A stretch of 64,000 bases of DNA, taken from contig CM049315.1 of assembly GCA_026874595.1 (NCBI GenBank), positions 37,774,164-37,838,163 of the forward strand, in the 5' to 3' direction. This DNA comes from Sipunculus nudus (taxonomy: Eukaryota; Annelida; Sipuncula; Golfingiida; Sipunculidae). Shown here piece by piece: positions 21,500 through 62,404 of the stretch. A program made the translations under genes and the position numbers. The notes under the pieces were generated by a model. That model saw nothing but the letters and a program-made list of their open reading frames with translations, was not told the DNA's origin and did no database searches. Every line of letters starts with the position of its first letter. Positions within the stretch are counted from its first letter, which is position 1.

Positions 21500-22040
21500 A
21501 GACGAGAGGTATTATTGTATACTCACGGTCCATCCATCAGTTAACTTTTAGTGTCAGCACGATAAATTACCAGCGGTTTGATTGATTTTCATGAAACTCA
21601 CCATAACTACTTACCAATAGATTATCTTGCCCAAGTTCAACTATGTGTAATATCAATGCATATTTAATAAGGTCAGAGGTCATGAGGCTACTTTGTGATG
21701 TCACTGCAATAACTTATGAGGAATATGATTAGATTTTATAAAACTCAGCAGCAAAATATTAATCAGTATGATATCTCACCTTAATTTGATTTCCAGCAAA
21801 ATCTAAACATATTTAATAAGGACAGAGGTCATCAAACTTTGGTGGCAGCATGGTTACTTACAAAAAAAATCTGATTGGTTTCCTTGAAACTCATTATGCA
21901 TATATTTACCAAAAGAGTTTCTCATCTAAATTACATTCTCTCAAAATTCACGCATATGTGTGGTCAGAGGTCATCAGATACACGATAGGTGTATTATGCA
22001 CCATTTGCGATGCTCATGTTAAAGCATTGTTTGTAAGCAA
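21500..22040 (+). repeat. Dispersed repeat family C, three ~145-bp units
   Basis: The head has CCATCTAAGACGAGAGGTAT and a GTCC-rich remnant. Three internal units follow, each with a block near TGATTTTCATGAAACTCA and a block ending in GGTCAGAGGTCAT. The latter recurs near 21671, 21820 and 21962 (steps of 149 and 142). The first unit contains a perfect AGGTCAGAGGTCA at 21670-21682. The family also occurs at 48849-49240 and 52430-52996. Confidence 0.7.
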
Positions 22041-24639
22041 ATAAAACTGGAACAAATATAGTTAGGGCCTACAAACATCCACCAGAATCTTCCCATCAGA
22101 CTTCCACATGTAACACAGGTTCACCTGGTGAGCAGCTGAACAAATGCTGCCCCTAATACCTATGAATGGACAGCCTCTATCTGAGACAAAGGAAAAAAAA
22201 TATATTGTGGTGATCCAGATTACCTCCTGAATTTAATGAATGGTGAAGGAGAAAGGCTATGTGCACAGAAAAATTATCCTAGTACTAAAGCTTAGCTGAA
22301 ACCCATATTAACAGTTCTTATACTATTAAAATGACAGATTAATTTTATTAAATTCCTTTGACTGTTCTTTTAGTTGGTCTTATGACTGGTCAGCAAACAC
22401 TGGTGACAACGTAGCTTTCTATGGAGGAGGAAGTATTTCTTCATTGGTCGTCATATATTTATATCTTTGGAGCTCCAATTCCCAGGGTCCTCTATTGAAA
22501 GGACCCTGTTGTTATGGACGTGACAATAGATGTGATCACCACTGGCAATAAGTATTGCAGGTGTGTTAGTAAGAGTCACCAGGCATTTCCTTTTATGATA
22601 TATTATTATAAACCTGGAATCACATCACTCATCTTGCTGCTTTTCCAAATGATGCATTACCCTTCTGCTGTCTTTAATCAGATGTTAATTGACTGCAAAG
22701 GCATCCTGTAGCATCAAAACTGTATACCCTGGATGATGTTTCCATGGCAACCAAACCATATATGAATTATTCATGAATTATAGGCATGCTCTTATGATTA
22801 TGGATGACCTCACTTGAGTTCTAGGGTTCTAACATATGGTGCCAAATATGGCAACTTTAGCATTCCTGTTCTCCTGACAAAGATGAATGCAAATCAAGAT
22901 GCATGTCTCTCAGATAATGCAGAAATGATTCATGCATAGGCTATTTACACATCGCTATGTTCTGCAATTTTTCTAAAAATTTTTAATTCATATATATTAT
23001 GTTTGAGAAAAAATAAACTGAGCCGCTTTGCTGGCTATGATTTTATGATTTAATAAGCCATGTGGAACCTGTGTTACAAGACCTACCATGAGACCAGCCG
23101 AAAGTGCACTTCAGTCCAAAGGTGGTCGAGATCATAAGATAGGTCAGTTATAATCAATGTGAATGCTTCATTCAAGTTAGGTGTTTATTGGCAGGTTGTC
23201 TTATTGTACAGTTATTCATTCAGACAGGTTCCATTCTATATTTTGGAAATAGTCCAGAGGTCATGACATGTATTCAGATTAGAATAAACCTCAACCAAGA
23301 CAACTTATGATACAAAAATGGTGTTTAGATATTAACATGTGATAAAGTGGAATATTATCATTTCATCTCAATATTATCTCATTTTGTTGATCAAATTACA
23401 TAATAACTAAGATCTTTAGATTCAGTGATATTTTGCATTCACAATTTTGTATATTTAGACATATTCTGTAACAAAAACAAGCATTGGTGGTAGGGTATTA
23501 ATGAATCAGTTACCTAAGCCATATAACAGTATAAGAGCTTAAGTGTGTAATTCCTGAGAGTACCATATATAAATTTGTATATCCAGTGCATAAGTTTATT
23601 GAACTGTCATGCTAACTGTTGGATAAATTACCTATCAACCCAGCAGATTTCGCATAATAGGAAGTTCTTCATGCCTAGGGATAACCATTAAATTTTATGA
23701 CTGCTTGTGCAATCATGTTTACATCAGAACACATGGCAGTAAATTGACCGGTTTAACTGGTGTAAGTGGCTGCTTATTTTGGCTGTTGTGGTGATCCTTG
23801 TATACCATGCTATGTACACATTACATATCTTACAGAGATGAATTAACGATACAAAGAGACCGATTTGTGTCGGTGCCAGCGTAGACTAGCCATCTTATGG
23901 TCCTATAGTGATATCAGATGAGATGTTTTACAATTTGCCTTTTTTGCATTTATAGATGGATTCCTTCACCAGTAACGCTGATGGTAGTGGCCTCTATAAT
24001 CGTAAAAGTCACAACCCCAATCAGTGTGATATCGGCAAGAAAGTAAAATTGATGCGAGGCAGAACAAATGAAATGACCTATTCTCTTTGTTATAAAGTCG
24101 TTTAGGAATGTATGAGGAGTGAGGGACTTTTATCAGTAGGTCTTTGTGGCCAATTCTTGTTGTTTGTTAAATGGCTCGTTAAAGTAATGATTGGAGAAAC
24201 CTGAATTAATTTGCGAGTAAATGGTATGTATTTCTGTGGAGTCATGTTACCATTTGTTAAATTTTAATCAAAATATGCTGTTGTTGAAATCCTGTGTGCT
24301 AAGTCCTAAGTGCCAAATATCATGGAGTTATAATTAGATTACAGTGAAACCACCATTGAATATCACTCATCTAGCATGGCCACCATGCTGTGATGATCAC
24401 TTCTTTTACTTCATATCTGAACTGGTCATAACCTGACCACCTGTAGAGGTTAGAGGTAGGATATGGGCTGGTGGACAAGGGATGAAGATCCTAGCTTGAT
24501 TCTATCCCCACCTGGGTCTCAAAACGAAAATGGTAGTAAATCAAAAGAACCTCAGAGATTCATAACAGTGTCTTAAAGGGGCCCAATCACCTATAAAGCA
24601 TGTTGAATTGACACAAATAAAAGCTTCTTCCCAAAATGT
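22041..24639. other. Unannotated stretch
   Basis: No exon recognised. A 49-codon ATG-started frame at 23955, preceded by an acceptor-like TTTATAG, is too short to call. A sequence resembling a mariner-type terminus (ACAGTGAAACCACC) lies near 24341 without a convincing partner. Confidence 0.4.
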
Positions 24640-24990
24640 TGGCCTGAAACCGTTTGCTTACTCCTTTAAACAAGTGTTAAAAACAGTGGACCGAGCGCGA
24701 TTACAGGTGTCATCATAAATACAGCAGGTGCGTCGCCCAGGCCACAAATGTGTCAACCAGGAGATGCCCTGACTGACTTGGCCCAAAAAATTTAATACAT
24801 GTTCTTGCTGGCTGAAACATTGCCTGTTGAGGGTAACAATCGGATCTCTGCTCATGTGGCCTAATTATGATAAACAGCCACGTGGACTGTGTTTACCAAC
24901 ACGCAGAACAAAAACAAGCTGTTAACCAGCCGTATACCAGGTGCTGATGCTGTGCACTGGAATGGTTTAACTTTGAAACTTTTGTATAAG
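24640..24990. promoter_or_regulatory. GC-richer unique block, candidate non-coding conserved element
   Basis: Composition is more balanced than the flanks and no repeat structure is visible. It includes a CACGTG E-box near 24882. Function is inferred only from composition and the absence of repeats. Confidence 0.2.
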
Positions 24991-25649
24991 GCAAAACTAA
25001 ACTGATGGTGTGAAATAATAGGCATAACATTGCTCCTGATTATGTCCCTTTAATGATGGGTTGTAACTACGTGATAGCCAAGTGTATAAATATAAAACCT
25101 GATTTCCAGAAAGCTTAACAATAACATATCCCTGTCATATAGGTACTTTCATCTAAGTTCAGTAGACAGCTAGAACCATAAACAGGCCATGGATTTATCT
25201 TTGAAATTTTATTGGACCCATATAGGTTATTGTCAGTGAGGTTTTACTATATGAAAATGTTTTATAATAATGGTTCAAGGTTTGGATTGTACTGATTTAT
25301 GTATAATGTTTACATTGATCAATTACAGAAGATTTTGGGAGGCTACAGGGATCCCTAGCTCGGCAAACTAGCTCTTAAAACAATAGAAGTTGTATAACGG
25401 TGAAGTGTTCAATTTGAGACCCCTAAGGTCTGATTTGACGGTGAGGTGGCAGTTTTCATAGCGCACAAGAGCAGTATCAATGACAGGTAAATTAACACTG
25501 TATTATGGTGAACCATAGCGGCTTTTGATGAAATTACCGAACGTGCACCATGGGTCATCTTAAAAGGAATCCCTGTACCCATCAAACTTGTGTTTTTCAT
25601 AAAACTGTTGCAGAGTAAATTACAACAGCGTTTCTGTTAACCCATGGAA

Positions 25650-25990
25650 TTAGCTTTCGTGGCATGTCTAAGGTTGCGTTCACACTGCCAACGACTGACA
25701 CATGACCAGCGAGGCGCGCTAGGTCCCTGGAGCCTGTTTAGTGTTGATAACAAGAATTCTGACCACCGTTGCTAGCTAATGCTTGTAAATGATGTCGAGG
25801 GCAGTATCGGTTTTACTGAAGCGATTCATCAGGTAAGGCATATCAGCTCACGGTGGATGTATTGATCCACTATCACTGGTAGAACGTGATGTAATGCTTT
25901 ATGTTGTTTAATAACCACTGTAACATACACCTCCAAATGCCACCGCCGGCCTGTAAATTACTAAGCTGATCAGGTTACATGACATGCTGC
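25650..25990. promoter_or_regulatory. GC-richer unique block
   Basis: Unique-looking sequence with several CpGs (for example GAGGCGCGCTAGG) inside AT-rich DNA. No open frame of note. Possible cis-regulatory sequence, weakly supported. Confidence 0.2.
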
Positions 25991-26339
25991 ATTACAATCA
26001 ACTTCTCTCATTTCTCATAGGCCAAAACTCCCTGTGAATCTATGCCTGTATCTAGTGCTAGTTACAGCATGTAGACACTAAATATACATGCCCTTCACTT
26101 TATAAGCTTCACAGTTAAGCTTATTCTTAATCCTTTATTCAGTGGCCGGGACTTCTTAGATATTGCAGAGCTCCTTTGCATGTATCTAACTGGAAATATT
26201 TTGAGTACTTGCTGTGCAAAGAAAACAAGAATTGTCTCATGAAATCAGTGTTTATGAGCTGTAATGCCATCTGACCATGCAAGCTTGTTCTCATCTGTAA
26301 TTTATTTTGTTCATTATAATGCTCGGAGGAGATTATCAG

Positions 26340-26415
26340 ATTGATGAAGGCTCTTAATTACATCCATTAAGTGAATGTTAATTGATTTGAAATGTTTCTG
26401 AGGTGATAATTAGGC
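26340..26415. promoter_or_regulatory. Cluster of homeodomain-type motifs
   Basis: TTAATTA (26354), CATTAAGTG (26365, NK2-like), GTTAATTGATTTG (26378) and GATAATTAGG (26405) lie within 75 bases. The density is reminiscent of developmental enhancers, though AT-rich DNA produces such motifs by chance. Confidence 0.25.
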
Positions 26416-26419
26416 TAAG

Positions 26420-28264: not shown

Positions 28265-29976
28265 TATTGTATCCGCCAAAACAGAGTTTTGCGGATACTA
28301 TGTTTTCAGCTGGCCGCCGCCGCCGCCGCGGCCGCGTAGGTGTCCGGAGAACTCCTCCGTAACCGCTGGGCGGAATTTTCCGAAACCCGGGATTATGTTC
28401 GGGTCACATGTGAACTGCTGCGCCCCGATTTTGTTTTGACCTCTGACCTTTCCTCTGCGCTCTGCGTCCGTTTGTGCGTCTGTTTCCACACATAAACCCA
28501 CATATCTCGGGAACCGTTTGACCGATCAGGAAAATTTTTTTGCACAAATGTAGCCCTCGGAGAGCTTTATAACATACACCAAAAATGGTGGCGCCACCTG
28601 CAACCATGTTTGCACAGTGTCCATCTGTTCGTCTGCCTTGGGTTAAAATCACTCATATCTCTGCAGTGACTTGACTAATTGACCTGAAATTCGGCATGCG
28701 CAAACATCCTGGATAGCTTTTCTGATTTTATGACAGGTGGCGCCACCTACATTCACGTTTACGCTGCAGACATCCAAGCTCATATCTCGGGAACCGTTTG
28801 ACCGATCAGGAAAATTCTTTTGCACAAATGTAGCCCTTGGAGAGCTTTATAACATACACCAAAAATGGTGGCGCCACCTGCAACCATGTTTGCACAGTGT
28901 CCATCTGTTCGTCTGCCTTGGGTTAAAATCACTAATATCTCTGCAGTGACTTGACTAATTCACCTGAAATTTGGCATGCGTATACATCCTGGATAGCTTA
29001 TCTGATTTTATGACAGGTGGCGCCACCTACATTCACGTTTATGCTGCAGACATCCAAGCTCATATCTCGGGAACCGTTTGACCGATCAGGAAAATTCTTT
29101 TGCACAAATGTAGCCCTTGGAGAGCTTTATAACATACACCAAAAATGGTGCCGCTACCTGCAACCATGTTTGCACAGTGTCCATCTGTTTGTCTGCCTTG
29201 GGTTAAAATCACTCATATCTCTACAGTGACTTGACTAATTCACCTGAAATTTGGCATGCGTATACATCCTGGATAGCTTTTCTGATTTTATGACAGGTGG
29301 CGCCACCTACATTCACGTTTACGCTGCAGACATCCAAGCTCATATCTCAGGAACCGTTTGACCGATCAGGAAAATTTTTTTGCACAAATGTAGCCCTTGG
29401 AGAGCTTTATAACATACACAAAAAATGGTGGCGCCACCTGCAACCATGTTTGCACAGTGTCCAGCTGTTCGTCTGCCTTTGGTTAAAATCACTCATATCT
29501 CTGCAGTGGTTTGACTAATTCACCTGAAATTCTGCATGCTTATACATCCTGGATAGCTTTTCTGATTTTATGACAGGTGGCGCCACCTACAATCAAGTTT
29601 ACGCTGCAGACATCCAAGCTCATATCTAGGGAACCGTTTGACCGATTGGGCCAAAATTTTGCATGTGTATAGTTCTCACAAAGCTCTTTATCATACGCTA
29701 AACTGGTGGCGCCACCTGCAACCCTTTTTTGCACAGCGTCCATCTGTTTGTCTGCCAAGGGCAAAAATCACCCATATACAATATAGTGGTTTGACTTATC
29801 TGCCTTAAATTTTGCATATGTATACAACTTGGACGGCTTTCTGGATTTTTTGGTAGGTAGCGCAACCTACATACACAATTTGGCTGCAGACATCCATGCT
29901 GATATGCAACACTTCACCCGTTCCACTCTGATTTAGGCGGATACAAGTAGTCGCTTGTCGACTACCCGTATTCTAG
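28265..29976 (+). mobile_element. Rolling-circle-like (Helitron/HINE-type) non-autonomous element, copy 1
   Basis: The 5' end holds a hairpin GTATCCGC...GCGGATAC (28269-28298) and then a CCG-repeat microsatellite (about 28316-28334). GTATCCGCC (28269) is inverted near the 3' end as GGCGGATAC (29936-29944). A perfect 7-bp hairpin GTAGTCG-CTTGT-CGACTAC (29947-29965) follows, and the element ends in CTAG (29973-29976) before T. A 3' hairpin about ten bases before CTRR and a flanking T is the classic Helitron end. The subterminal inverted repeats, 5' microsatellite and central tandem repeats fit Helentron-associated elements. No Rep/helicase frame is present. The second copy at 60968-62404 has the same ends. 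Confidence 0.75.
28501..29780 (+). repeat. Central tandem array, 280-bp unit
   Basis: CATATCTCGGGAACC-type sequence starts at 28501, 28781, 29061, 29341 and 29621, exactly 280 bases apart. Each unit has two GGTGGCGCCACC palindromes (a few copies mutated). Short + strand open frames at 28737, 29017 and 29297 are the same peptide in successive units. Because 280 is not divisible by three, no frame can run through the array, so it is not a coding repeat. Confidence 0.9.
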
Positions 29977-30724
29977 TTTATTATTTATTATTATTATAGT
30001 CTGTTTCATCCCCTCATGTCCACCTGATTTTTGCTATGAAAATTTTTATTAGGTACATTTCAAGGGAAACAATTATAGTGTAAAGGAGAGGATTACAGAA
30101 CCTAATTTTCAACTACGGTAGGTAACTAAATTCCTACCTTGTGCCATATTTGAATAACAGAATTTTCTGAAAATATGAGAAATCAGTCTACATTTTACAA
30201 CATATCAGACCCACTTATGGTGGTCAAGGTCATTGGTCACATGCAAAAACAGCCTCAACTGACAGCTTCTGATTGGATGATCTCATGTAAACACTTTAAA
30301 AAATATAACCAGTTAAAACAAAGATGGCCACTTATGGAGGGACACACCATATGTGCCAGATCATGATAAAGAGACTAAAATGTTGTGAAACATAAACGGG
30401 GGATTTATTGTAAAATTCTTAACTGCCATATTAGGTTGTCACTTCCATATGTTATTTATTTGGAAAATATTGAAAAATATAAACTTTTAAGTAAATCATT
30501 GACAAAAAACAGGTGGACAGCAGGTGGTGAAATGGACTATAGGTATTTCACCTGGAAGTGAAAAGGGCCTATTATGATATCAGACATGTATCAACTGAAG
30601 TAAATACCTTGAACCTATTATAAAAATATTAAAGAAAACACCTATTTTATAACTTTTATTTTGTTTGTATCTATATGTTAATATCCTAGTTGGAGGTAGG
30701 GGGAATCCAAAATAATTAAAACAC
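29977..30724. other. Unannotated stretch
   Basis: AT-rich with no recognised feature. Confidence 0.4.
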
Positions 30725-33690: not shown

Positions 33691-34981
33691 TACATAAATG
33701 CAGAAGTTGAAAGGTCATTAGTTGAAACACACACTATTTGCAAAACTCTGATTTGACTGACTTGTCAGCTGATGTCCTTTTTGAATGTGTTTGGATTATT
33801 TTGGTGAGACCCCTGTTATAAACACTTTGTGGATATAACCAAAATGAACAGCCTGTGTGTATATAATTGAACGGGCCTTTTCTGGCTTATTTTATAAAAG
33901 GCTCAAGGGATTATCTTCATTTAATAGATGACAGGTATCAGAATAGGCCCCTTTAAGGTCAATCAGTGTAAGTTGAATCTGTAATGGTGGACTTTGCATT
34001 TCTGGTGAAGATATTTATACAGTAAGGACTACCGGTATATATATTTACCCTGATGTTTCAACCCCGGAGGATGTAGCTCAGTATCAGAGGGCAAGTCATG
34101 AAAGTGGCTATTCCATCCATGTAAAAAAGAATGAAGAGAAATTTTAAAAGCTAACTTTTCTTTGGGAGAAGGTCAAGTGCCGTTTTAGTATTGATTTGGT
34201 GCTGTAGGTTCAGCAATGACAGGAGCCTTGAGTCTCGCTACAAGAAGATAAATCGCTGCTGGTCTGCAGGTTGACAAGTAGTTGCAATAAGACCAATCTA
34301 GGCATATCCAAGCAGCAAGGTGGAGGGAATACCAATACAGTAGGATACTCAGCTATACATTGAATGATAGGAAGGGATAAAATAAGTGTTTCCCTCAGTG
34401 TCAGAGGGCGTCCCCAGGGTGTGTGCTGCCCATCTAAGCTTAAAATGAAGTCTTTCTCATTAGAAATGATGCCTGCAGACAGACTGTATTTTTTTTCTGT
34501 CCAAGTGTCCACTAGCTTGTGATCAGGATTTTCATTTTTCTATGGTGTTGAAAATATCAGTTATAAATATATTTCAGTTTGATGGAGAGCATGTTTCTCT
34601 GTTCAGCTGCTGGTACATATTTTATGTGATTTCACAACAGGGAGCTAATTTTTTGCCCATGCTTATAATTCTCCTGTCTGGTGAAATCTTTGAAACATAA
34701 AACATAGGTCAGTGTGACCAATATTCATTCTGCAAACTATTGGCAAAACATGATTTTTAACACTCTAGAAGTCATTCTTAACAATGTTAAATGTTGCTTA
34801 ACATATTTTATAAAAGAAAAAATAATATGCCAAACATTTAAACCTGTCAGAATGTACAATTTGAATAAATGAGCCCATGGGGCCAACCACTTGTACAGAA
34901 ATGTCACAAAAACTTGTTAAAATTCACTAAAATTATTCCAGTTTTATTAAAATTGAATCATGCACTTAAGTAATATAAATG
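33691..34981. other. Mostly unannotated; one tRNA-like A-box
   Basis: GGATGTAGCTCAGTATCAGA near 34078 resembles a tRNA A-box and may be a SINE head remnant. A 100-codon minus-strand frame at 34210-34512 is unrecognised. Confidence 0.35.
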
Positions 34982-36875
34982 TCGAGGCCCAGATTAGAAT
35001 CTGGTCCAAGTTAAAACTGGGCCAGCCCAGATCAAAAGTTTGATTTGGACCAGCCCAGATCATAATTCTAATCTGGGCCAGACCAGTTTTAAACTGGGCC
35101 AGCCCAGATAAGAATTTTGATCTGGGCCAGTACAGATTAAAATCCAGTGGTGAAGACTTCAGGATTTATATCTGGTTTGGACTGATTTTAAACTGGGCTG
35201 GCCAAGATTGGAATTTTGATCTGGACTGGTTAAGTTTACAATCCTGTTGTGGACTGATTTTAAACTGGGCCGGCCCATATTAAAATTTGAATCTAGGCTA
35301 GTCATGATTACAATCCTGTGGTGGACTGATTTTAAACTGGGCCTTACCAGATCAGAATCCTAATCTAAACTTAGGCTAGCTTGATTTTTATCATCCTAAT
35401 TCAGATAATACATAAACATTTATTTCAAATACACCATTTTGAAGGGCACAAAACACATTATGAACAAGACCATTTAAAATATTTCAGTGAGAAAAAGGTA
35501 AACGAACAAATGTAAAGTGCTACTTTGGTTTCATCTATTCTTCAAGCATACAAGTTCACATTTGAACTTCACCTAAACCAACTACCATAATTAATCACAG
35601 TTTAGAATATGTGTCAGTTTTGAGACATCTACTTGACTTATTATCAAAATTTTCAACTTAACTGAGATAATTTTCTGTTCTGAATATCAAAATTACATGC
35701 ATAATATTAAATATATACAAGCATGATTAAATACCAGCTTTACTCATTTATAAGTGAACAAAAGTATTTTATCAGTCTTGATGCTCATTTGGGTGAGCAG
35801 CATGACATTGTGCCCTAACATAGGGCTAGGGAGAGGTTTGTGATACAATTACTGTTATTTTCAATAGCAGAAAAACACTGTTCTATCTAAATACATTATG
35901 ATTGTGTTAATAATTCACACAAATTATCAAATATCAACCTAATTTGTGTACACGAGATATATTTTTTTCTGTTTGCTAAATTTTGGTCACCTAATTTCAA
36001 TGACTTAAGTTCAGGTATCTTAATAGATGTTTCAGGGCCTTCTTTCCTTAATATGTAGTACGTTATAAGTTCTAGGTCCAGTGTTACAGAATGTGCAAAT
36101 TTTTTAATGGGTGACTGGGGGTGTGGGGTGGGTAGGGATCACAGACCAAAAACCTCAACTTATGATAAATGATAAATAACTTTAAATAACAAATAAAATT
36201 TTGAATTTACAGGTCTTGGATCACAAGCTTAACATTGTGTAACATATATATTAATAATCATTGAGTAAATTTTGTTTTAATTTGTTGAATTAATGCACAT
36301 GTTCTGCAAGCTATATTTGTAGTTTTTAGTTGTAAAATACTGATGTTTAACATGATTATTTTATAATTATATTTTAGACATTTCACATAAGAAGTAGAAT
36401 TACAAAATAAATATGACAGGAGGCCAACCAATGATATTTTTACAGAATACAAAAGAAATTCATAAAATATTTAAAATTATTATTGACTTACAATGTTTTA
36501 CAAATTCTTTGAATTGATTAAAGGCCAGCTAGGTATATATAGTGTAATTGAAGCCAGCCTAGGAGTAGATAAGGATTCTGATCTGGGCTGGTCCTGTTTA
36601 AAATCAGTCCACCACAGGATTGTTAACCTGACCTGCCCAGATCAAAATTCTAATCTCGGCTAGCCCAGTTTAAAATCAGTCCAGACCAGATTTAAATCCT
36701 GAAGTCTTCACCACTGGATTTTAATTTGGACTGGCCCAGATCAAAATTCTAATCTGGGCTGGCCCAGTTTAAAACTGGTATGGCCCAGATTAGAATTATG
36801 ATCTGGGCCGGTCCAAATCAAAATTTTGATCTGGGCTGGCCCAGTTTTAAATTGGGCCAGCTTCTAATCTGGGTC

Positions 36876-36879
<4 letters not shown>
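34982..36879. mobile_element. Foldback-type element with ~0.4-kb subrepeated inverted termini
   Basis: The left end TCGAGGCCCAGATTAGAATC is inverted at the right end (TCGAGACCCAGATTAGAAGC on the minus strand, from 36879). Both arms (about 34982-35400 and 36515-36879) are built from tandem variants of CTGGGCCAGCCCAGATCAAA, itself a 6-bp inverted repeat around CA. Non-repeat blocks, such as a TGAAGACTTCAGGATTTA-like segment, are mirrored in matching order, showing the arms are true inverted copies. The central 1.1 kb is AT-rich with no transposase. A clean target duplication is not visible. It resembles foldback or long-TIR non-autonomous DNA transposons. Confidence 0.8.

Positions 36880-36930
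<51 letters not shown>
36879..36930. repeat. (AT)n microsatellite
   Basis: About 26 uninterrupted AT units abut the right end of the foldback element. The microsatellite may have been the insertion target or may have grown afterwards. Confidence 0.95.
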
Positions 36931-36933
<3 letters not shown>

Positions 36934-43967: not shown

Positions 43968-45000
43968 TTAGCCTTCAGCCTTAGGCTGATGGGCTATTGT
44001 CGTCACCCAAGCTGTCCGTCCGTCCGTCCGGTGTCCGTTAACTTTTAACTTGTGAGCGGGATATCTTGAAAAGGATTCACCGTCAGAATTTTATTTCCTC
44101 GGTAAAGATGTATATCGACAAAATCTCGGTCAAGTTCAAAGATGGGTGACCTTGACCTATTTTTCTACATTTTAGAGCTGATAATAGAAAAACACTTAGA
44201 TGCTTATTACTCAGGAACCATTTGGTGGATTTTCACAAAACTTACTATGATTATTTGGACTGATAGTCTGTACCTGCTAAACAAGTTTGGTGGCGCCACC
44301 TACAATTTCTGATTTTTAATGAATTTTTATCGGATTTTTCAACTTTGGGCTTGTGAGCGGGATATCTCGAAAAGGATTCACCGTAAGAATTTTATTTTTT
44401 TTCGGTGAAGATGTATATTGGCAAAATCTCGGTCAAGTTCGAAGATGGGTGACCTTGACCTATTTTTCTACGTTTTAGAGCTGATTATAGAAAAAACATT
44501 TAGAAGCTTATTTCTCAGGAACCATTGGATGGATTTTCACAATACTTTCTATGATCATAGGGACTGATGGTCTGTAACTGCTGCACAAGTTTGGGGGCGC
44601 CACCTGCAATTTCTGATTTTTTATTCAATTTTTCTTGGATTTTTCAACTTTGGCCTTGTGAGCGGGATATCTCTAAAAGGATTCACAATAGGAATTTTAT
44701 TTCTTTGGTGAAGATGTATATCGACAAAAATCTCTTTCATGTTCGAAGATGGGTGACCTTGACCTACTTTTCAAGGTCACAGAGCTTATAATAGAATAAA
44801 ACTTAGAAGCTTATTTTTCAGGAAGCATTTTGTGGATTGTTATGAATCATGGTACATACCGCCCCATTTTAAATTTATAACTGAGACATGTACAGATATA
44901 CATCCATGTGAGAACAGATATTTAGTACTTGTTACTGTTACCACCTCTAAACACTGTTGTTTTGGCTGAGGGCTTTTGTCAGCTTTTGCTGATATTCTAG
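43968..45000 (+). mobile_element. Rolling-circle-like non-autonomous element, second family
   Basis: The head has the inverted pair TCAGCC-TTA-GGCTGA (43975-43989) and then GTCCGTCCGTCCGTCC. GCCTTCAGCC (43971) is nearly inverted as GGCTGAGGGC (44964-44973). A hairpin TCAGC-TTTT-GCTGA (44979-44992) is followed by TATTCTAG, ending at 45000 before T. This matches the terminal layout of the 28.3-kb element although the sequences differ. The interior holds three units of about 300 bases (CTTGTGAGCGGGATATC at 44049, 44350 and 44655), each with a TGACCTTGACCT motif. No coding frame for Rep/helicase is present. Confidence 0.7.
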
Positions 45001-46090: not shown

Positions 46091-46095
46091 GGTTT

Positions 46096-48848: not shown

Positions 48849-49240
48849 ATCTTCATGATTGAAATTCATAGAAAGTAAAACATGACAAGAACCTCAGGGT
48901 GAGTGAAGCTGGTTTTTGATCTGTTATATACCAGTGTCATTTTGCCCATAGACAGAACCAAACTTAGGCATCATGTGACTCATTCCCCAGTGTCAGTTTG
49001 AGGTGTTTTATATGCTCATCTGAGAGGGGATGTACTATTGTACACCCACAGTCTGTCCGTCTGTTTACTTTTAGTGTGCTGAGATAATTAACTTACCAGG
49101 GCTTTCATGGATTTACACAAAACTCACTTTTACTACTTACCAATATATTATCTTGCCCAAGATCAATTCTTGGTAAACTCCACACATATTCAATGAGGTC
49201 AGAGGTCACCAGGCTTATTTGTGGAGTTTTACGTTAGCGT
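48849..49240 (+). repeat. Family C repeat with 5' flank, first of a duplicated pair
   Basis: The first part (48849-49010) and its order are repeated at 52608-52790: ATGATTGAAATTCATAGAA, GAGGCTGGTTTTTGAT-type sequence, TTGCCCATAGACA and CAGTGTCARTTTGA. Then comes the family C head with GTCTGTCCGTC, a module with ACACAAAACTCACT, and a perfect AGGTCAGAGGTCA at 49196-49208. Confidence 0.65.
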
Positions 49241-52429: not shown

Positions 52430-52996
52430 GACTTTTTGTGGCACTGTGAAGACTCAGCAAAGTTCTGTTTGATTTTCATGAAACTCATTGTATAAGTATT
52501 TAACAAAAGTGTTTCTCACCTGAATTAAATTCTCTGCAAATTCCATGCATATTTAAGGAGGTCAGAGGTCAAAAGACATAATATTATGTACTCTTCCGAT
52601 GTTCTTGTTGATGATTGAAATTCATAGAAGGTAAAACCTGCCCTCAGCGTGGTTGAGGCTGGTTTTTGATCCATTATATATCTGCAGAAGTCCTTGAAAC
52701 CAGTGCCTTATTGCCCATAGACAAAACTAAAATTAGGTCTTGTGGGACTTATTTCTCAGTGTCAATTTGAAGTGTTTTTTACATCAATCTTAGATAGGAC
52801 GTATTACGGTATACCCACTCTTGTCTGTCTGATAACCTTTAAATGTCGCTATGACAGCTTACCAGATTTTACAAAACTCACTATAAGTACTTACCAATAT
52901 ATTATATTACCTGAGTTCCATTCTAGGTAAAACCTACGTATATTTAATGAGGTCTGAGGTCACAAGATGGATATATATGTGCTCTTGCGGTCCTCT
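52430..52996 (+). repeat. Family C repeat, second of a duplicated pair
   Basis: Contains TTTGATTTTCATGAAACTCA, a perfect AGGTCAGAGGTCA at 52559-52571, the duplicated flank shared with 48849-49010, and then another head plus module ending in AGGTCTGAGGTCA (near 52952) and CTCTTGTTTT. The arrangement implies a tandem duplication of flank plus element. Confidence 0.65.
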
Positions 52997-53467
52997 TGTT
53001 TTGTTTGGTCAAAGCAGTTTAATAGTTCTGTTTTGAAAATTAATTGTTTCCAGTTTCTGAATGACAGGATACTTAGCAGAGTGCCAAGTGATTGCCCCCC
53101 CTCCCCCCCAAAAAAAATTATAAATCTGGAACACAGGTAGGCTATGCCATCAGTGTTATTCAGTCTCTTGATCTGTGTTGTCATGGTTGTATTTGATATA
53201 AACATTTATGTTTCAAATCAGCACTGTAGAGAGATCAATTTGATTAGTCCTGAAAGTGTTAAAGAGTTTTACCGGATACACCAGCCATGAATGATGGTCA
53301 GTAATAGCTAGTGAGTTGGTTACCATTGACTAAGATACTGATGAAAGGACAAAATGATTTCCAATAGGAAATGCTGAAATGTTGTATCTAGAGATCAAGA
53401 TAGTCAACTGTACATATGTTTTGGTTTAACTTACCACAAATCCTTACCTTCTGTTTTATCATTTCAG
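52997..53467. other. 3' end of the intron before the TM exon
   Basis: Contains a C-rich tract near 53093-53110. It ends with a good pyrimidine-rich acceptor, TTCTGTTTTATCATTTCAG, directly before 53468. Confidence 0.7.
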
Positions 53468-53718
53468 TGGAACATGTGGTCTCTGTGTTCATCCCAAAGG
53501 ATACAGGAGAACAGATTGCCCAGCTGGTTGACAACCAGACCCGTGTACACATTACCATCTCGATGGGACGGCAGATCCCAATCAGCAGCAGCATGGATAA
53601 ACCCAGCGTTCTCTTTGTCTCCATCTCGTTCATTGTTCTCATGATCATCTCACTGGCATGGCTCGTCTTCTACTACATTCAGCGCTTCAGATATGCACAC
53701 GCTAAAGAAAGACTTGCT
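53468..53718 (+). CDS. Goliath-family RING E3 ubiquitin ligase: exon for end of PA domain and transmembrane helix
   Basis: A 251-bp exon with acceptor TTTCAG and donor GTAAGT, starting in phase 1 and ending in phase 0. After the split Val codon it encodes EHVVSVFIPKDTGEQIAQLV, then a hydrophilic stretch with NQTRVHITISMG, then VLFVSISFIVLMIISLAWLV followed by FYYIQRFRYAHAKERLA. The VSISFIVLMIIS...W..FYYIQRFRY helix with basic cytosolic border is the signature of RNF130/RNF150/goliath proteins: endosomal membrane E3 ligases with a lumenal PA domain, one helix and a cytosolic RING-H2. The exon covers the last PA strand(s) through the start of the cytosolic linker. NQT is a lumenal N-glycosylation site. 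The next exon should begin the linker before the RING; no RING exon (C-x2-C...H-x2-H) was found to the window end. The mollusc paralog cannot be assigned, so no symbol is given. The minus-strand frame here is an antisense shadow. Confidence 0.93.
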
Positions 53719-53856
53719 GTAAGTATCATAAAGTTTCTCCTTTGACCAGTGATGTATGACTTGTTTCTGGACTTGGATTGGAGTCTGGACTCAAGTCAGG
53801 GACTCGGAAATGAGGGTCCTGGACCCAGGAGAGCAGGTTGAGTCCATTCAAAGGTG
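53719..53856 (+). other. Intron start with GACT-rich dispersed repeat
   Basis: After the donor, TTCTGGACTTGGATTGGAGT and GACTCAAGTC-type sequence appears, related to the block at 56930-57075 in the same orientation. Confidence 0.45.
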
Positions 53857-53964: not shown

Positions 53965-54045
53965 GTCCCTCTCTTTATTAATTCCTTAATATTTGATATA
54001 GGCAGGCAAGAATTAAGCCCCCCATCATTAGGTCTGACAGCCATG

Positions 54046-54985
54046 GCCTAGCAACCGAGGTTGGGCTTGAAAAGCGGGTGCCCTATAGTAATCGACCTGT
54101 CCGTCAGTCTGTTGGTCCGTCCACAAATTCTTTTCCGGATGATAACTCCAGTTAGGATTGAAGGATAGAGTTCAAACCTGAAACATGTATTAACCATCAT
54201 GGAAGAGCCCTATCGATTTTGGGGTCCAGAGGTCAAAGGTCAAAAAAGTTATTCACAGTTTGGTGTTAAATTTAAGGTCCCTCTTTCAGCAGGGCAGAAA
54301 TCATAATTGTAACCATAATTGTTTGTTCCACCTTAACAGTAGGACAGGTCCTCATGTCAACAGCAACGAGGCATGATATATGGTCATAGTCAGCCATTTT
54401 TTGGTAAGTTATGTGGTAAAAACCATTACTTAACACCTAGTAAGGTTGTGCTCTCTTAGCAAATATGCATGCAAAAGGACACACATTGTTAACACAATAA
54501 CTCGTAAAAAGTATTTCTTATAAGGTCCCCAGACTCACGGCAGTGATGGACCTTTTGATGGGCTACATCATGTTTGAAGATGGGTGACCTTGATGGATTT
54601 TCAAGGTCTCAAAGGTGATAGTGCTAAAGTGATGTTAACCAAATAGCTTGCAGACAATTTGACTAACACTCACTGAACTTGCACCAGTAATGTATGTTAT
54701 GAAGGGCTAGGTCAAGTTCCAAGATGGATGACCTTGACAGAGGCGATAATTCTCAAATGATGTTAATGCAATAACTCGCAAAGAATTGATGAAAAATCAA
54801 ATACATTTCTGCATAATAACTCCCCTAACATATGATGGATAGGATTCAAACAATATATGTATCACCTATGGCCTAAGGGAGAAGCTTATTGATAGTTGGG
54901 TCAGAAGGAAAAAAAAAAGTAATACACAGTTTGGTGTTCAGTTGCTGGTGTCTCCTTCAGCAGGCCAGAAATGGATGAATCTTTT
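54046..54985 (+). repeat. GTCCGTC-headed repeat family D with two modules
   Basis: The head GCCATGGCCTAGCAACC is followed by GGGTGCCCTATAG and CTGTCCGTCAGTCTG. Two internal units about 0.69 kb apart share GATAACTCC...GATAG(A/G)(A/G)TTCAAAC and CACAGTTTGGTGTT...TTCAGCAGG. It has a perfect AGGTCAAAGGTCA (54230-54242) and two TGACCTTGA motifs (54585, 54729). The inverted repeat arms at 53857 and 55731 bracket it. The 3' boundary is uncertain. Confidence 0.6.
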
Positions 54986-55730: not shown

Positions 55731-55838
55731 CCATATAGTGTGAAAAATTCCAGGAAAATGTCAGATAAGTAATTGTTATAAGGAAATGACCAAGAAAAGT
55801 AACAAATTTAACCAAAATCTACACTAATAGCAATTCAA
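55731..55838 (-). repeat. Right arm of the ~108-bp inverted repeat
   Basis: The reverse complement reads TGAATTGCTATTAGTGTAGA, GGTTAAATTTGTTACTTTTC, GGTCATTTCCTTATAACAAT and so on, matching 53857-53964. The 1.77 kb between the arms would form the loop of a foldback structure. Confidence 0.8.
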
Positions 55839-56019
55839 GCGCCTGTGGTCCATCTCAAGACCAGCAGAAAACAACTTTGTCACACAAGGCCTGAAATTCA
55901 ATTTAAAAATCCCACCATAAAGACATATATGCACAGACTATGACAAAATATTACAAAAACAAGTTTATACTATGTACATAACTCAATCTGTGCATTGGAA
56001 GTTAAATATTATTCAATAT

Positions 56020-56700: not shown

Positions 56701-56929
56701 TCTCCAACTACACACTATGATCTGATATTCCAATTTAATATACACTGACCTGTTAATGCACCGCATAAATTATGTTTTCCCTAACTTATTTCTTTATTTT
56801 ATGAAATTCCATTTGACATACACTAGGTAGGTAGCACATTTGTGTCACAGTAAAACCCTTTGTGTAAACTTACTTTCAAATGCAAATGATGATGTGAACT
56901 TAGAATTTTAAGGTGTTTTAAATAAAAAA

Positions 56930-57075
56930 ATTTTGGACTCTGACTTGAACTTGTTCCAAAAGAATCAGGCTTGGAAAGGGCAGACTTAGACTCAACCTCA
57001 AGGACTTGGACCTCGAGTGGCTTCGACTCAGACTTGCACTCAGACCTGGATAGTGTGGACTCTACTACAACACTG
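56930..57075 (+). repeat. GACTTGGACTC-type dispersed repeat
   Basis: Repeated GACTTGGACCTCGAGTGG, TTCGACTCAGACTTGCACTC-like phrases, as also seen at 53760-53830. The Ser/Lys/Glu-rich minus-strand frame at 56823-57137 is a translation of this low-complexity repeat. Confidence 0.5.
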
Positions 57076-57552
57076 CTTTTGACAACAGGACTAATATTGG
57101 AGTGGTGAAAGCCTTGGAAGGTGTCTGTCTGGCACATCCTGCAAAAGCAGGTTTCAAGACTCAGATCTGTTGTTGAGTGCAGGTTGCTTTATTCCACTTT
57201 CTCACTCCAAATATGAAATGGTTTGTTTTTGCGTGCATTTAGGACTCCCATGACACTGCAGTGCCAAAATATCTTTATATGTGCAAAATTTAGCATTTTA
57301 AACTTCAAATAAACCATCTTGAATTGTGTGAAGAAGTTGGTTTCAAAATGGATTATATTTCAGGATGTTGCTGCATTAGTTTGGTAGCAAGTACCATGTC
57401 CCTTTTAAGAAACCCTTAGAGAGTGTAAGCTGTTTCCTTATGTCTATATGTTAGAGATATTTCACATTATTTTAACTGAAAAAATTTACAACTTACCTTC
57501 TCTTACCCAAAGTCCATACCACCCTCACTTACCTCAACTCAGTCACACCCAA

Positions 57553-58025
57553 ACACTCTGAAAACTGTGGTTAGCTTTATGTTCGGGTGGCTGAAATTTC
57601 GCAATTTCTTCATTTTGAACGTTTTGCGAGGGTTTCATCTTCGCGATTTCACAAGAACTAAAAAAATTCAGTACAACAGAATTTGTATGTCTTATAAGAT
57701 AAGAATATAACCTACAATACCTCATATGTTTCTGTTACAATCATTATATTAAGATATTTGTAACAGTCAATTTATCCCAGGGGATATTAAGATTGACAAT
57801 AATTAATGGGTTTTTGCATGGTTCTGATACAATGTACAGGTTAGATTGCTGATTAAGAACCATGTTTTCATGGGCTTCCCGATACTACAGATGCATCATC
57901 AACTCTCATTTATCTTGGATGACAGGGCGTCTTATTCCCAAGGGTTTCCTATTTGCAGTTATTTCCCATTCGCAAATATCGCGAATTTAAAACCCTCACA
58001 AACCAAAAGGCAACCATAGTACTGC
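57553..58025. mobile_element. MITE, AACTGTGGTT-type inverted termini
   Basis: The left arm begins near AACTGTGGTTAGCTTTATG; the right arm, inverted, begins near ACTATGGTTGCCTTTTGG and continues GTTTGTGAGGGTTT, AAATTCGCGATATTTGCGAA. The arms pair over roughly 60 bases with mismatches. No coding sequence lies between. A single related arm is at 46096-46190. Confidence 0.55.
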
Positions 58026-58744
58026 CATCGTATATTGTTAGTGGAAATATTTAGGAGAGAGTCAAGGTAAGCTTTGCACTTGCACTCGAGTAGCTTGCAC
58101 TCAATCCTAGTGATGCTTGTATTATGTGATATATATGTGCATATTCAGTATCAATAAAAATATCTGGAAAAAAAAAAAAAATATGTTTCACATCATGATG
58201 GCAGACACTCGGGAAGGACAGGCTGTGTTACCACAGAAAGCATATTGAAAATGCTTGTATGCCAAACACTCCGAATAGTTTAAAACTGGTTTGTGAGTTA
58301 AATAAGAATAAGACTGCTTTAGAATTTAAGGGAAGTGTGGACTGCACTCCAACGACAGAATAAATGAGATGCCAAGGTTTTGTCCATACACAGCATCCCT
58401 GCAGAGCATTTTCATCCTGTTAAGCAGGAAGAGGAGGACAGGACATTTTCACCTTCGCCATCTGAGTAAAATATTGTCCAGTAGCTTTGAACATAATCCT
58501 ATCAGCTAAATATAGAATCCACTCAGGCTGGTGTTAAACCTGTCTAGACAACACTGGCATCCCTGTCTCCAGAATTAACAAGATGAGAAATTGTAATTGA
58601 AATCATGCCATGTGTTCTAGAAGCTGACAAGATTTAATATTAACAGTACTTAATAACATGTTCATATGTCTGGCACCTAATCCTGATTCTGATGGTAGCT
58701 CTGATTCTGAGCTTGTCAGAAAAAAATACCTAATGGCAGTTTGG
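58026..58744. other. Unannotated stretch
   Basis: Nothing recognised beyond a 13-base A run near 58168. Confidence 0.4.
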
Positions 58745-59050
58745 CAAAAAATATTTTATTGTTATGGTAGAGACTTTTTTTCTTATGATAAATTTTTTTT
58801 TCTTATGATAAGAGGATTTTTTTAATCAGAAAAAAGATATCTTATGGCAAGAAATAATATCCTAGGATATTATGATGAAGAAAATGTTTCTTTAATAAGA
58901 TATTATATCTTGTCTTATAATAATCTAGATCTATTTTCTTGCCCCATGAGCATGCTGCCTATAAATCAAGAAAAAAATATCTGGATGATTTTTTGTCAAC
59001 AGAAAAGTTTTCTTTGGATGAGAAATATAGTATTTTTAGCAGTGCATACT
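58745..59050. repeat. T-rich, palindrome-rich AT block
   Basis: Repeated TTTTTTTCTTATGATAA phrases, and a perfect 20-bp palindrome ATAATATCCTAGGATATTAT at 58854-58873, followed by TAAGATATTATATCTTGTCT. It may be a decayed MITE, but I could not define termini. Confidence 0.5.
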
Positions 59051-60240
59051 CTGTCAGGTAAGGTTTTAAGCTCAGCTGACTGTAATTAATTGAATCTTTG
59101 TGATCAGCCAGAGTTCATTGCCTGTCCTGTTAGACAGTGTTATCTCCTAAATGCTGGGCATACAGATTTTAAATTAGTGACTAACGTTTTTACAAGGTCT
59201 CTTGCAACATGACACTATAATTATGACCTCATTTCTGAAAGTTATGGCATAAGTTTAGTGTTATGGCCCAGTGGTCACTTGATTTATGATTAAAGTTTTC
59301 TGTTAAACAAGAATTTTATGTGAAGGCGAATTTTTCCATGAATTGTAACAGAAAACTTGAATTTTGGACTGTGATAGTTAGCCACTGCAAAACTTACATT
59401 ATAAATTGAAAATACATAATAGCCATATCTGTGTTCTTTCTAAATATCAGTTACATTTGCCACCACTAGTAAAACAGAATGAATAAATGGGTTGTTGACA
59501 TTGCAGGAAATTTAAAACAAATATTAATTCAATGAAGCAGTTACAAGACAATTCGTTGCCAGACAGGCTGTTAATTGATATGAGAATTGTCCTTGGTAGC
59601 CTTCCCTTATTGATAACCAGATGTGAGAAGAAGTGAAGATGGTTTGTATTATCTCTGCCTTCCCATGTTTCATGAAAATCATTTTCAGTAATTCTATGAA
59701 CAGATAGAGAACACACAAACAAAGAAATGCCAGGGAAAAATGATTTCTTTAATAACACAACCATCTACACTAGATGATGTTTAATTTAGGCCTGGCCTGG
59801 AACTACTTCTTGTCAAACCAGGTAATTGAGGTTGTTGACATGGAGTTCCAGGTACATTTTTTTTATCCAGGTTAGAAACTTTGCCATTTCATCCACTTAT
59901 TGATGATGAAAAATGTAATTTAAAAGTGTGAATATAACAAGTAATCCCGGTTACCTATCACTTGCATTTAATTGTGTTTACTATGTCCTGACATTTAAAG
60001 ATAAACATGTCATGTATGCAATTTTGAATAGTTATTAAGTTTCATTGTATTTTTTCTAACTAATAGGTTTCAGGAAAGAGTATCTTTTTTAATTTCCACT
60101 GTATATGATGATTCTCTTGTGCCTTGTTTGTGAAGGCTTATGCTCAGCTAAAAAGACTGCAAAAGGCCAGCCTTTAGAATCATAAAATTGGAAATCTTTT
60201 GGACATCTTGGATGATCAAATGATGTGGAATATATTATTC
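59051..60240. other. Unannotated intron-like stretch
   Basis: No exon for the Goliath linker or RING was recognised. A 105-codon minus-strand frame at 59447-59764 has no known motif. Confidence 0.4.
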
Positions 60241-60640
60241 CAGCTAGCACTGCCCTAACGGATGGCTGAAAGAAATATTTGATGGAGTCTGAAAACTAAA
60301 GCTTCATCACAGCGGTTTTTGCTTTGACTTCTGGGATAGATTTTCCACTGGTCTTATCGCTGTAACACAGGAGGGACAGGGCTGACTTTTACGTGAGGTG
60401 CTGCTATATTGTCACGCAATTGTCAATGGGAGATGCTCCACTCATCCCGGCAAATTGGCAGGAGTCTGGAGTTTTGATTCCTCTGACAGCTTCGTCTGAT
60501 TAGAACGTGTATACTGGTTTTGTGACGTATTCCACTGGCTTGTCTAACAATGTGGTCCCCGGCTCTGCTTCTAGACTCAGACAATTTGTTACACAGGATT
60601 ACAGGACTTTGCTGATAATCAGGTCATTTGTGTATTGTCA
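60241..60640. promoter_or_regulatory. Balanced-composition unique block, candidate conserved non-coding element
   Basis: Non-repetitive sequence with a GTGACGTATT CRE-like motif near 60521 and no useful open frame. Weak call, by contrast with the neighbours. Confidence 0.18.
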
Positions 60641-60967
60641 AGACTGAATTCACATAGTCTTCAAAGTAGGACCAAATAAGAAGATTATATTATGAGGTCT
60701 TGTTGCATGTGACCCAAGCCATTTTCTCCTTTTTATCAGCAGATACACCCAACAGCTGTGACAATAGATTTTACCAAGATCATTTCCCAAGTTTACTAAA
60801 TAATTCTTTGCCTTAAACAAATTAAAACAAAAGGTTCAAAAGATTAATTCAAAAGAATTCTAGCAGTACCAGATTCTTCCAGTAGAGGTCAGAATCAGTA
60901 GCGGGTCCTCACTTGGAGATGTGTACAAACATAAAAATGGTCCAGCCTCACTGAACTCAAGCATTTT

Positions 60968-62404
60968 ATTTGTATCCGCCAAAACAGAGTTTTGCAGATA
61001 CTATGTTTTCAGCTGCACGCCGCCGCCGCAGCCGCCGCCACCGCCACCGCCGCGGCGGCGTAGGTGTCCGGAGAACTGCTCCGTAACCGCTGGGCGGAAT
61101 TTTACGAAACCCGGGGTTTTGTTCGGGTCACATATGAACTGCTGCGCCCCGATTTTGTTTTGACCTCTGACCTTTCCTCTGCGCTCTGCGTCCGTTTGTG
61201 CGTCTGTTTCCACACATAAACCCACATATCTCGGGAACCGTTTGACGGATCAGGAAAATTTTTTTGCACAAATGTAGCCCTTGGAGAGCTTTATAACATA
61301 CACAAAAAATGGTGGCGCCACCTGCAACCATGTTTGCATAGTGTCCATCTGTTCGTCTGCCTTGGGTAAAAATCACTCATATCTCTGCAGTGATTTGACT
61401 AATTCACCTGAAATTCGGCATGCGTATACATCCTGGATAGCTTTTCTGTGGCGCCACCTACATTCACATTTACGCTGCAGACATCCAAGCTCATATCTCG
61501 GGAACCATTTGACTGATTGGGCCAAAATTTTGCATGTGTATAGATCTCACATAGCTCTTTATCATACGCAAAACTGGTGGCGGCACCTGCAGGGATTTTT
61601 GCACAGCTCCCGTCTGTTTGTCTGCCATGGGATAAAATCCCTCATATCTCTGCAGTGATTTGACTAATTCACCTGAAATTCGGCATGCGTATACATCCTG
61701 GATAGCTTTTCTGATTTTATGACAGGTGGCGCCACCTGCAACCATTTATACACAGCGTCCATCTGTTCATCTGCCTTGGGATAATATTACTCATATCTCA
61801 GCAGTGGTTTGACTTATCCACCTGAAATTTTGCAGGTTTATACATCCTGCACAGCTTTCTTGATTTTATGACAGGTGGCGCCACCTACATTCACGTTTAC
61901 GCTGCAGACATCCAAGCTCATATCTCGGGAACCGTTTGACCGATTGGGCCAAAATTTTGCATATGTTTAGATCTCACATAGCTCTTTATCATACGCAAAA
62001 CTGGTGGTGCCACCTGCAGCCATTTTTTCACAGCTCCCGTCTGTTTGTCTGCCATGGGATAAAATCACTCATATCTCGGCAGTGGTTTGACATATCTGCC
62101 TAAAATTTTGCAGGTTTATACATCACCGACAGCTCTCTTGATTTTATTACAGGTGGCGCCACCTGCATTCTAGTTTATGCAGCAGACATCCAAGCTCATA
62201 TCTTGGGAACCGTTTGACCGATTGGGCCAAAGTTTTGCATGTGTATAGTTCTCATATAGCTCTTTATCATACGCAAAACTGTATATGCCAATATGCAACA
62301 CTTCACTCTATTTCCCCTTGCCACTCAATCCATGCCTCACTTCACCCGTTCCACTCTAATTTAGGCGGATACACGTAGTCGCTTGTCGACTACCCGTATT
62401 CTAG
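60968..62404 (+). mobile_element. Rolling-circle-like (Helitron/HINE-type) non-autonomous element, copy 2
   Basis: Same family and orientation as 28265-29976. GTATCCGCC (60972) is inverted as GGCGGATAC (62364-62372), with a longer CCG/CGG microsatellite (about 61018-61062) after the 5' hairpin. The 3' hairpin GTAGTCG-CTTGT-CGACTAC (62375-62393) is intact and the element ends in CTAG (62401-62404) before T. The central array is irregular (module starts near 61225, 61492, 61919 and 62197), so copy number and unit length have changed. A perfect TGACCTCTGACCT lies at 61161-61173, as in copy 1. Short frames on both strands are repeat translations. Confidence 0.75.

What the first reader, a model, noticed from the sequence alone, without database searches (positions are those of the whole stretch)
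21670..61173. Unrelated repeat families all carry perfect nuclear-receptor motifs
AGGTCAGAGGTCA or AGGTCAAAGGTCA, a perfect DR1 (two AGGTCA half-sites, one-base spacer), occurs at 21670-21682, 49196-49208, 52559-52571 and 54230-54242, and on the minus strand at 28437-28449 and 61161-61173. The 44-kb element has AGGTCAAGGTCA (which includes TCAAGGTCA, an ERR/FTZ-F1-type site) three times on the minus strand, at 44147, 44450 and 44754. Family D adds two TGACCTTGA sites. A 12-fixed-base motif is expected about 0.01 times in 64 kb, yet six perfect copies appear, all inside repeats. This suggests mobile DNA distributes RXR/HNF4- or ERR-type sites through the introns of a gene. Motif identity is seen; binding and function are inference.
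Basis: partly seen in the sequence, partly recalled or inferred. Interest (0 to 1): 0.75.

Follow-up and report, generated by a model that had tools for sequence, protein, structure and literature searches.

The report
Repeat families spreading nuclear-receptor-like DNA motifs
Several unlike families of repeated DNA in this animal genome carry the paired AGGTCA sequence that hormone-type (nuclear) receptors recognise, and their multiplication has put tens of thousands of perfect copies in the genome; whether any receptor uses them is untested.

Summary
The motifs are real: six perfect DR1, three DR0, seven TCAAGGTCA. The window is ordinary for its genome, which holds 65,466 perfect DR1 against 251 for the reversed control; in RGKTCA form 82,284, the printed human count being 11,230.

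The six DR1 are three family-level events: F1 twice, F2 three times, an F3-like repeat once. F1-F4 pairs show no similarity above shuffles outside the half-sites; a looser clustering joins F3 with F4, and a very loose one nearly all. In 20 blind pieces AGGTCA has the most direct repeats of 440 comparable hexamers, though 23rd in abundance.

Copies found by motif-free anchors carry DR1 in 31/40 (F1), 15/40 (F2), 11/20 (F3). Within copies the motif is not significantly better kept than neighbouring windows (combined P 0.17); between F1 subfamilies and F2 monomers it is kept 13/13.

Reading: an inherited module of several amplifying elements, decaying roughly neutrally afterwards. Receptor genes of DR1-binding type exist; binding is untested. 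Inverted sites are enriched too.

The parts
28269..29977 (-). F1 element, copy 1 (about 1.7 kb): 5' end ACTAGAATACGGG at 29965-29977, tandem core with 280-bp period, 3' palindrome at 28269-28298; DR1 at 28437-28449
   Evidence: ends located; tandem array 28501-29905; DR1; flanks compared
28437..28449 (-). perfect DR1 AGGTCAGAGGTCA in F1 copy 1
60972..62405 (-). F1 element, copy 2 (about 1.4 kb): same ends, DR1 at 61161-61173
61161..61173 (-). perfect DR1 AGGTCAGAGGTCA in F1 copy 2
21544..22020 (+). F2 repeat of diverged monomers (142-147 bp in the family consensus); DR1 slot three times: perfect at 21670, one mismatch at 21819 and 21961
   Evidence: monomer spacing
21670..21682 (+). perfect DR1 AGGTCAGAGGTCA in F2
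49089..49227 (+). F2 fragment with a perfect DR1 at 49196-49208
52434..52609 (+). F2 fragment with a perfect DR1 at 52559-52571
52865..53002 (+). further F2 fragment with a one-mismatch DR1 at 52950-52962
54120..54243 (+). F3-like repeat with DR1 AGGTCAAAGGTCA at 54230-54242
   Evidence: similarity to F3 Z 7.8 with half-sites masked
44040..44838 (-). F5, the '44-kb element': 304-bp tandem array with three DR0 (44147, 44450, 44754)
54568..54738 (-). 'Family D': two stretches (54568-54620, 54707-54738) similar to F5, each with a TCAAGGTCA site (54585, 54729)

Best explanation
Several high-copy, satellite-like or mobile repeat families (F1 to F5 and others), several of them built of units of about 130-150 bp or twice that, carry closely spaced AGGTCA half-sites in their consensus. 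Amplification of these families, not point mutation or selection at each locus, made perfect DR1/DR0 sites so common. While the elements were active the block was retained between lineages; single copies then decay roughly neutrally. The sites have the sequence that NR2-class receptors (RXR, HNF4, COUP-TF, TR2/4) bind (established knowledge, recalled), and the genome encodes such DNA-binding domains, so binding of accessible copies is plausible. Shown: motifs, families, genome-wide excess, lineage-level retention in two families, receptor genes. Inferred: binding. Not shown: any effect on host genes.
For: DR1 65,466 vs control 251; DR0 62,800 vs 343; DR2 17,385 vs 277. One spacer (G) gives 21,401 of the DR1 and the chain AGGTCAAAGGTCAAGGTCA is found 22,468 times. 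40 DR1 clusters from the start of contig C1: 27 F1, 6 F3, 3 F4, 2 F2, 2 other (families). All 3 DR1 met in 150 kb taken blind to the motif fall in F2 or F3. Motif-free anchors: perfect DR1 in 31/40 F1, 15/40 F2 and 11/20 F3 copies. F1 subfamily consensuses share DR1 13/13 while 83/160 other columns right of the anchor are identical; with copies clustered only on the 3' segment, 13/13 vs 61/110. F2 monomers: 13/13 in both comparisons vs 0.64 over 148 outside columns. DNA-binding domains match HNF4, RXR, COUP-TF and NR2C2 best.
Against: Within copies DR1 is above the window mean in 8 of 8 overlapping tests, but only one P is under 0.05 (range 0.035-0.45); combined over three families P 0.17. In F1b it is below its flanks (0.925 vs 0.968). 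The lineage-level tests rest on two families chosen because they carry the motif, and conserved blocks extend beyond it (a 20-base run in F1; left flank 0.85-0.90 in F2). A second F1 block (CAGTTCACATGTGACC) is equally invariant. About a third of the DR1 (neither spacer G nor that chain) were not assigned to families beyond the 40-cluster sample.
Confidence: 0.62

Rival explanations
1. Element-level selection for receptor binding: receptors active in germ line or early embryo (TR2/4, RXR, COUP-TF, GCNF-type) bind the AGGTCA arrays and open or transcribe the elements, so unlike families keep or converge on the same sites.
For: Families with no similarity above shuffles outside the half-sites share the motif. 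Of 440 comparable hexamers AGGTCA has the most direct repeats but is 23rd in abundance. DR1 is retained between subfamilies and monomers. DR0 and DR1 are the most numerous geometries counted, and the 50 inverted sites listed are all IR0 or IR3, geometries I recall as classical.
Against: No occupancy data. Numbers fall steeply with spacing (DR0 and DR1, then DR2, then DR3-5), which short tandem duplication would also give. F1 looks non-autonomous, so it is unclear what its own transcription would bring.
Confidence: 0.25
2. Common descent plus short tandem duplication: the families are remote relatives of one old repeat with a unit of about 145-150 bp in which AGGTCA was duplicated at 6-7 base steps; sharing reflects ancestry, not function.
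For: Similar unit lengths (F2 142-147; F3 about 144/288 from site spacing; F1 149 and 280, F5 304). Links between clusters at E 6e-3 to 4e-5, and 81 of 87 segments joined at E 1e-2. Raised scores F1-F5 Z 5.3, F1 and the F3-like window repeat Z 3.8, F5 and that repeat Z 4.1, F2-F5 Z 3.0. Chains with spacings 2, 1 and 0.
Against: Pairs among F1, F2, F3 and F4 are at shuffle level with half-sites masked (Z at most 2.2; rough shuffle). Two- to four-copy, unequal spacings are not a plain microsatellite. IR3 palindromes are not explained by tandem duplication.
Confidence: 0.3
3. Host exaptation: many copies are working enhancers or silencers of host genes and are kept by selection.
For: Precedent in primate Alu DR2 and HNF4 sites, with ChIP (PMC1785376, abstract and passages; PMC3252374, abstract and outline).
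Against: No significant excess conservation of the motif within copies; no expression or binding data here.
Confidence: 0.06
4. Chance or artefact.
For: None found.
Against: Shuffles, reversed-pattern controls and the 440-hexamer comparison.
Confidence: 0.01

Closest known systems
Alu-borne DR2 retinoic acid response elements in primates (PMC1785376; abstract and passages seen)
   Same: A repeat family's amplification makes one nuclear-receptor arrangement by far the commonest in a genome (108,582 DR2, about 90% in Alu).
   Different: There one SINE family and chiefly one geometry, produced largely by CpG deamination. Here several dissimilar families and several geometries, with the motif already in the consensus of F1, F2 and F3; how it arose was not tested.
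HNF4 sites in Alu repeats (PMC3252374; abstract and outline seen)
   Same: Receptor sites carried by repeats in very large numbers.
   Different: Binding was measured there by protein-binding arrays and ChIP; here it is inferred from sequence only.
Helentron-associated interspersed elements (HINE) of the Pacific oyster (PMC7492417; passages seen)
   Same: F1: satellite-like tandem units inside a short element, subterminal inverted match, 3' palindrome, no consistent target-site duplication.
   Different: The G+C-rich triplet run lies at the right, not the left; the 5' subTIR repeated inverted before the palindrome was not found as described; no autonomous partner was sought.

Membership tests
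Repeat-propagated nuclear-receptor response elements (Alu-DR2 kind) | perfect site in the repeat family's consensus | tested here: met
   alignment consensuses of F1, F2 and F3; copies found by motif-free anchors 31/40, 15/40, 11/20
Repeat-propagated nuclear-receptor response elements (Alu-DR2 kind) | genome-wide excess driven by those repeats | tested here: met
   65,466 vs 251; 38 of 40 sampled clusters and 3 of 3 from the motif-blind sample in F1-F4; no full repeat annotation was made
Repeat-propagated nuclear-receptor response elements (Alu-DR2 kind) | receptor occupancy in cells | not testable with these tools
   no binding data held
Repeat-propagated nuclear-receptor response elements (Alu-DR2 kind) | origin of the site by CpG deamination | not tested
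   no ancestral sequence available
HINE / Helentron (for F1) | central satellite-like tandem repeats | tested here: met
   periods 280 (28501-29905), 149 and 278 (61576-62281); GGTGGCGCCACC spacing mostly 129-149, partly below the 140-180 bp typical of oyster
HINE / Helentron (for F1) | 3' terminal palindrome | tested here: met
   GTATCCGC...GCGGATAC in both window copies and many of the sampled copies
HINE / Helentron (for F1) | 5' subTIR with nearby complementary IR, and the same subTIR inverted at the right before the palindrome | tested here: inconclusive
   5' stem GTAGTCG/CGACTAC present; best inverted left-right match is 9 bp exact (13 bp with one mismatch) but lies in the palindrome itself (one window copy)
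HINE / Helentron (for F1) | no target-site duplication | tested here: met
   12 copies examined: 10 share at most 4 bases near the junctions, one 6 and one 8 in A+T-rich sequence; 5' flank ends in A in 12/12, 3' flank starts with A in 12/12
HINE / Helentron (for F1) | microsatellite in the left flank | tested here: not met
   no tandem repeat listed at the left ends of the two window copies; a triplet run (61018-61053) lies near the 3' end of copy 2
HINE / Helentron (for F1) | mobilising Rep/helicase of an autonomous partner | not tested
Receptor side: NR2-class DNA-binding domains | the genome encodes receptors of DR1-binding type | tested here: met
   PF00105: 67 matches; 10 fetched, 4 searched: best solved relatives HNF4, RXR, COUP-TF, NR2C2

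The most novel reading that the evidence does not exclude
A community of unlike repeat families has separately kept or acquired AGGTCA arrays because nuclear receptors present in germ line or early embryo license these elements, turning one hormone-receptor code into a shared amplification signal and leaving tens of thousands of DR1/DR0/ERE-like sites across the genome.
Probability: 0.17. Interest if true: 0.85.

Novelty: new variant of a known kind. Interest (0 to 1): 0.55.

Why it matters
If receptors bind them, they form a very large reservoir or sink of response elements in what looks to me like a non-vertebrate animal (not determined), a counterpart to Alu-DR2. The split between retention across element lineages and near-neutral decay in copies gives a testable way to separate use by the element from use by the host.

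Tried and rejected
Rfam scan of the window at gathering scores: no match. Pfam on 10 of the 269 stop-to-stop frames of 55 residues or more: none over a curated cut-off; a PDB search of the exon-like frame gave only E 0.18 or worse; a regular-expression look for a RING exon gave one short CAVCI match (4624-4638) without the rest of a RING. The first conservation test with flank permutation (P 0.021 F1a, 0.026 all F1, 0.056 F2, 0.077 F3, but 0.48 F1c and 0.96 F1b) was replaced by a sliding-window null that keeps neighbour correlation, which removed significance. A plain microsatellite origin was rejected because spacings are unequal and arrays have 2-4 copies. Literature searches: in the listings shown (15 of 116, 15 of 28, otherwise all) I saw no paper on nuclear-receptor sites in molluscan or other invertebrate repeats; only open-licence PMC papers are held. 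The species was not determined: 'mollusc-like' rests on recalled resemblance of the repeats and is not used as evidence. One search was my own script error, repeated.

Dropped rows and sampling: L065 and L067 (F1) and L156 (F3) were left out of alignments but counted as misses in 31/40 and 11/20. F1 copies are 40 consecutive listed places on C1 beyond 2.9 Mb; F2 copies are 40 of the 100 listed places (39 on C1, 1 on C2); F3 copies are 20, one per array, from the first 3.4 Mb of C1. In one search the F1 subfamilies were defined by words just right of DR1 (10 of 40 copies fitted none), which biases against those columns; one search repeats the test without that. The 40 DR1 clusters are the first listed on C1; the printed list is not complete for the minus strand (compare), so their family shares are rough. 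In one search the rank depends on the measure: by number of pieces AGGTCA ties with the shifted word GGTCAA among the 440, and among all non-simple hexamers, A+T-rich ones included, it is third with 8 ties.
Full report
OBSERVATION. The six perfect DR1 (AGGTCANAGGTCA), three DR0 and seven TCAAGGTCA sites are in the window at the stated places. Dinucleotide shuffles give 0.03 DR1 on average. Allowing one mismatch there are ten DR1; nine lie in the same families and one (30227) does not.

GENOME CONTEXT. The window is C10:37774164-37838163 of a 1.43-Gb genome. Counts over both strands, each with the reversed pattern as control: DR1 65,466 vs 251; DR0 62,800 vs 343; DR2 17,385 vs 277; DR3-5 together 9,142 vs 1,134; RGKTCANRGKTCA 82,284 vs 2,725. 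The human count for the last pattern is 11,230 (PMC1785376, Table 1, passage seen). So the window (six found, 2.9 expected from the genome mean) is ordinary for this genome, and it is the genome that is unusual. Inverted AGGTCAN{0,3}TGACCT has 18,298 sites vs 431 (the pattern is its own reverse complement, so one strand is quoted). The 50 sites listed are all IR3 or IR0, which I recall as the classical oestrogen and palindromic thyroid elements. This weakens a reading limited to DR1.

IS AGGTCA SPECIAL? In 20 pieces of 7.5 kb taken at round coordinates on 11 contigs, AGGTCA gives six direct repeats at spacings 0-5 in four pieces. By number it is first of 440 hexamers of equal G+C without CpG; the shifted word GGTCAA has four (also in four pieces) and the next word three. 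Among all non-simple hexamers, A+T-rich ones included, it is third by pieces with 8 ties. In plain abundance it is 23rd of 440. The arrangement, more than the half-site, stands out.

FAMILIES. 40 DR1 clusters from the start of C1 were fetched and lined up: 27 F1, 6 F3, 3 F4, 2 F2, 2 other (families). Single-linkage clustering of 87 direct-repeat segments with half-sites masked gives 17 clusters at E 1e-12, 14 at 1e-8, 10 at 1e-4 and 6 at 1e-2, the last with 81 segments in one. With half-sites masked, pairs among F1, F2, F3 and F4 score at shuffle level (Z at most 2.2); the F3-like window repeat scores Z 7.8 with F3, 4.1 with F5 and 3.8 with F1; F1-F5 scores 5.3 and F2-F5 3.0. 'Family D' belongs with F5. 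Geometry goes with family: F1 and F2 DR1 with spacer G; F3 and F4 chains mixing DR1 and DR0 (and DR2 in F3); F5 DR0; others DR3 (spacer ACA) and DR4.

ANATOMY. Both window copies of F1 run from ACTAGAATACGGG (5') through a tandem core to the 3' palindrome GTATCCGC...GCGGATAC. Twelve copies with both ends show no consistent target-site duplication. This resembles the HINE elements of oyster (PMC7492417, passages seen), but one feature was not met and one is unclear, so I do not file it there. F2 is a run of monomers 142-147 bp apart in consensus, each with the DR1 slot.

DOES THE MOTIF OUTLAST ITS SURROUNDINGS? Copies were chosen by exact words that do not include the motif: F1 18-mer, 6,797 places; F2 16-mer, 909; F3 14-mer, 16,342. 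I fetched 40, 40 and 20 of them. A perfect DR1 is present in 31/40, 15/40 and 11/20. Under a sliding-window null DR1 is above the mean in all eight (overlapping) tests, but P is 0.035-0.45, and one value per family (the least favourable for F2) combines to 0.17. Hence no good evidence for selection on copies after insertion. Between lineages it differs: three F1 subfamily consensuses share DR1 13/13 against 83/160 other columns right of the anchor, and 13/13 against 61/110 when copies are clustered only on the 3' segment. The F2 monomers share 13/13 twice against 0.64 elsewhere. Caveats: families were picked for the motif, the conserved blocks are wider than it, and F1 has a second equally invariant block (CAGTTCACATGTGACC).

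RECEPTORS. PF00105 gives 67 matches. Ten were fetched and four searched: best solved relatives HNF4, RXR, COUP-TF and NR2C2/TR4. That these classes bind DR1 is established knowledge (recalled). ERR was not looked for individually.

VERDICT. The best reading is an inherited module spread by amplification of several element families, of the Alu-DR2 kind but with several families and geometries. Gene context: the frame at 53404-53742 looks to me like a transmembrane exon of a goliath/RNF130-type ligase (recalled; not confirmed).

Noticed in passing
genome-wide; e.g. G000 C1:114023-114037: Inverted AGGTCAN{0,3}TGACCT sites number 18,298 against 431 in the control; the 50 listed are all IR3 (such as AGGTCACAGTGACCT) or IR0 AGGTCATGACCT.
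   Followed up: partly
F1 copies, 32 bases 3' of the DR1 start; window minus strand 28402-28417 and 61126-61141: Second F1 block CAGTTCACATGTGACC, containing an inverted pair of receptor-like half-sites, identical in the three subfamily consensuses.
   Followed up: partly
G000 C1:291422-308421 (L181): Tandem array with a period of about 1.3 kb, most units with the chain AGGTCAAAGGTCAAGGTCA; the two units read fall in F4.
   Followed up: partly
window 28587-29705, 61311-62152 and 44289: Palindrome GGTGGCGCCACC 12 times in the two F1 arrays and once inside F5, a possible link between the two families.
   Followed up: no
window 34973-35295 and 36566-36888: Inverted arms of 323 bases, 90% complementary, 1.27 kb apart, rich in TGGGCCAGCCCAG-like words.
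   Followed up: no
window 53404-53742 (+): Open frame resembling a transmembrane exon of a goliath/RNF130-type ubiquitin ligase (recalled); no Pfam hit over cut-off.
   Followed up: partly
G000 C1:218283, 335873, 371191, 1268543 (L189-L192): A dispersed family of closely similar copies carries DR3 AGGTCAACAAGGTCA, which is 50 of the 100 places listed for DR3-5 (hand count; copies).
   Followed up: partly
L172 and L043: The word AACATGGATATTATT occurs on both sides of one F1 insertion, not directly at its ends.
   Followed up: no
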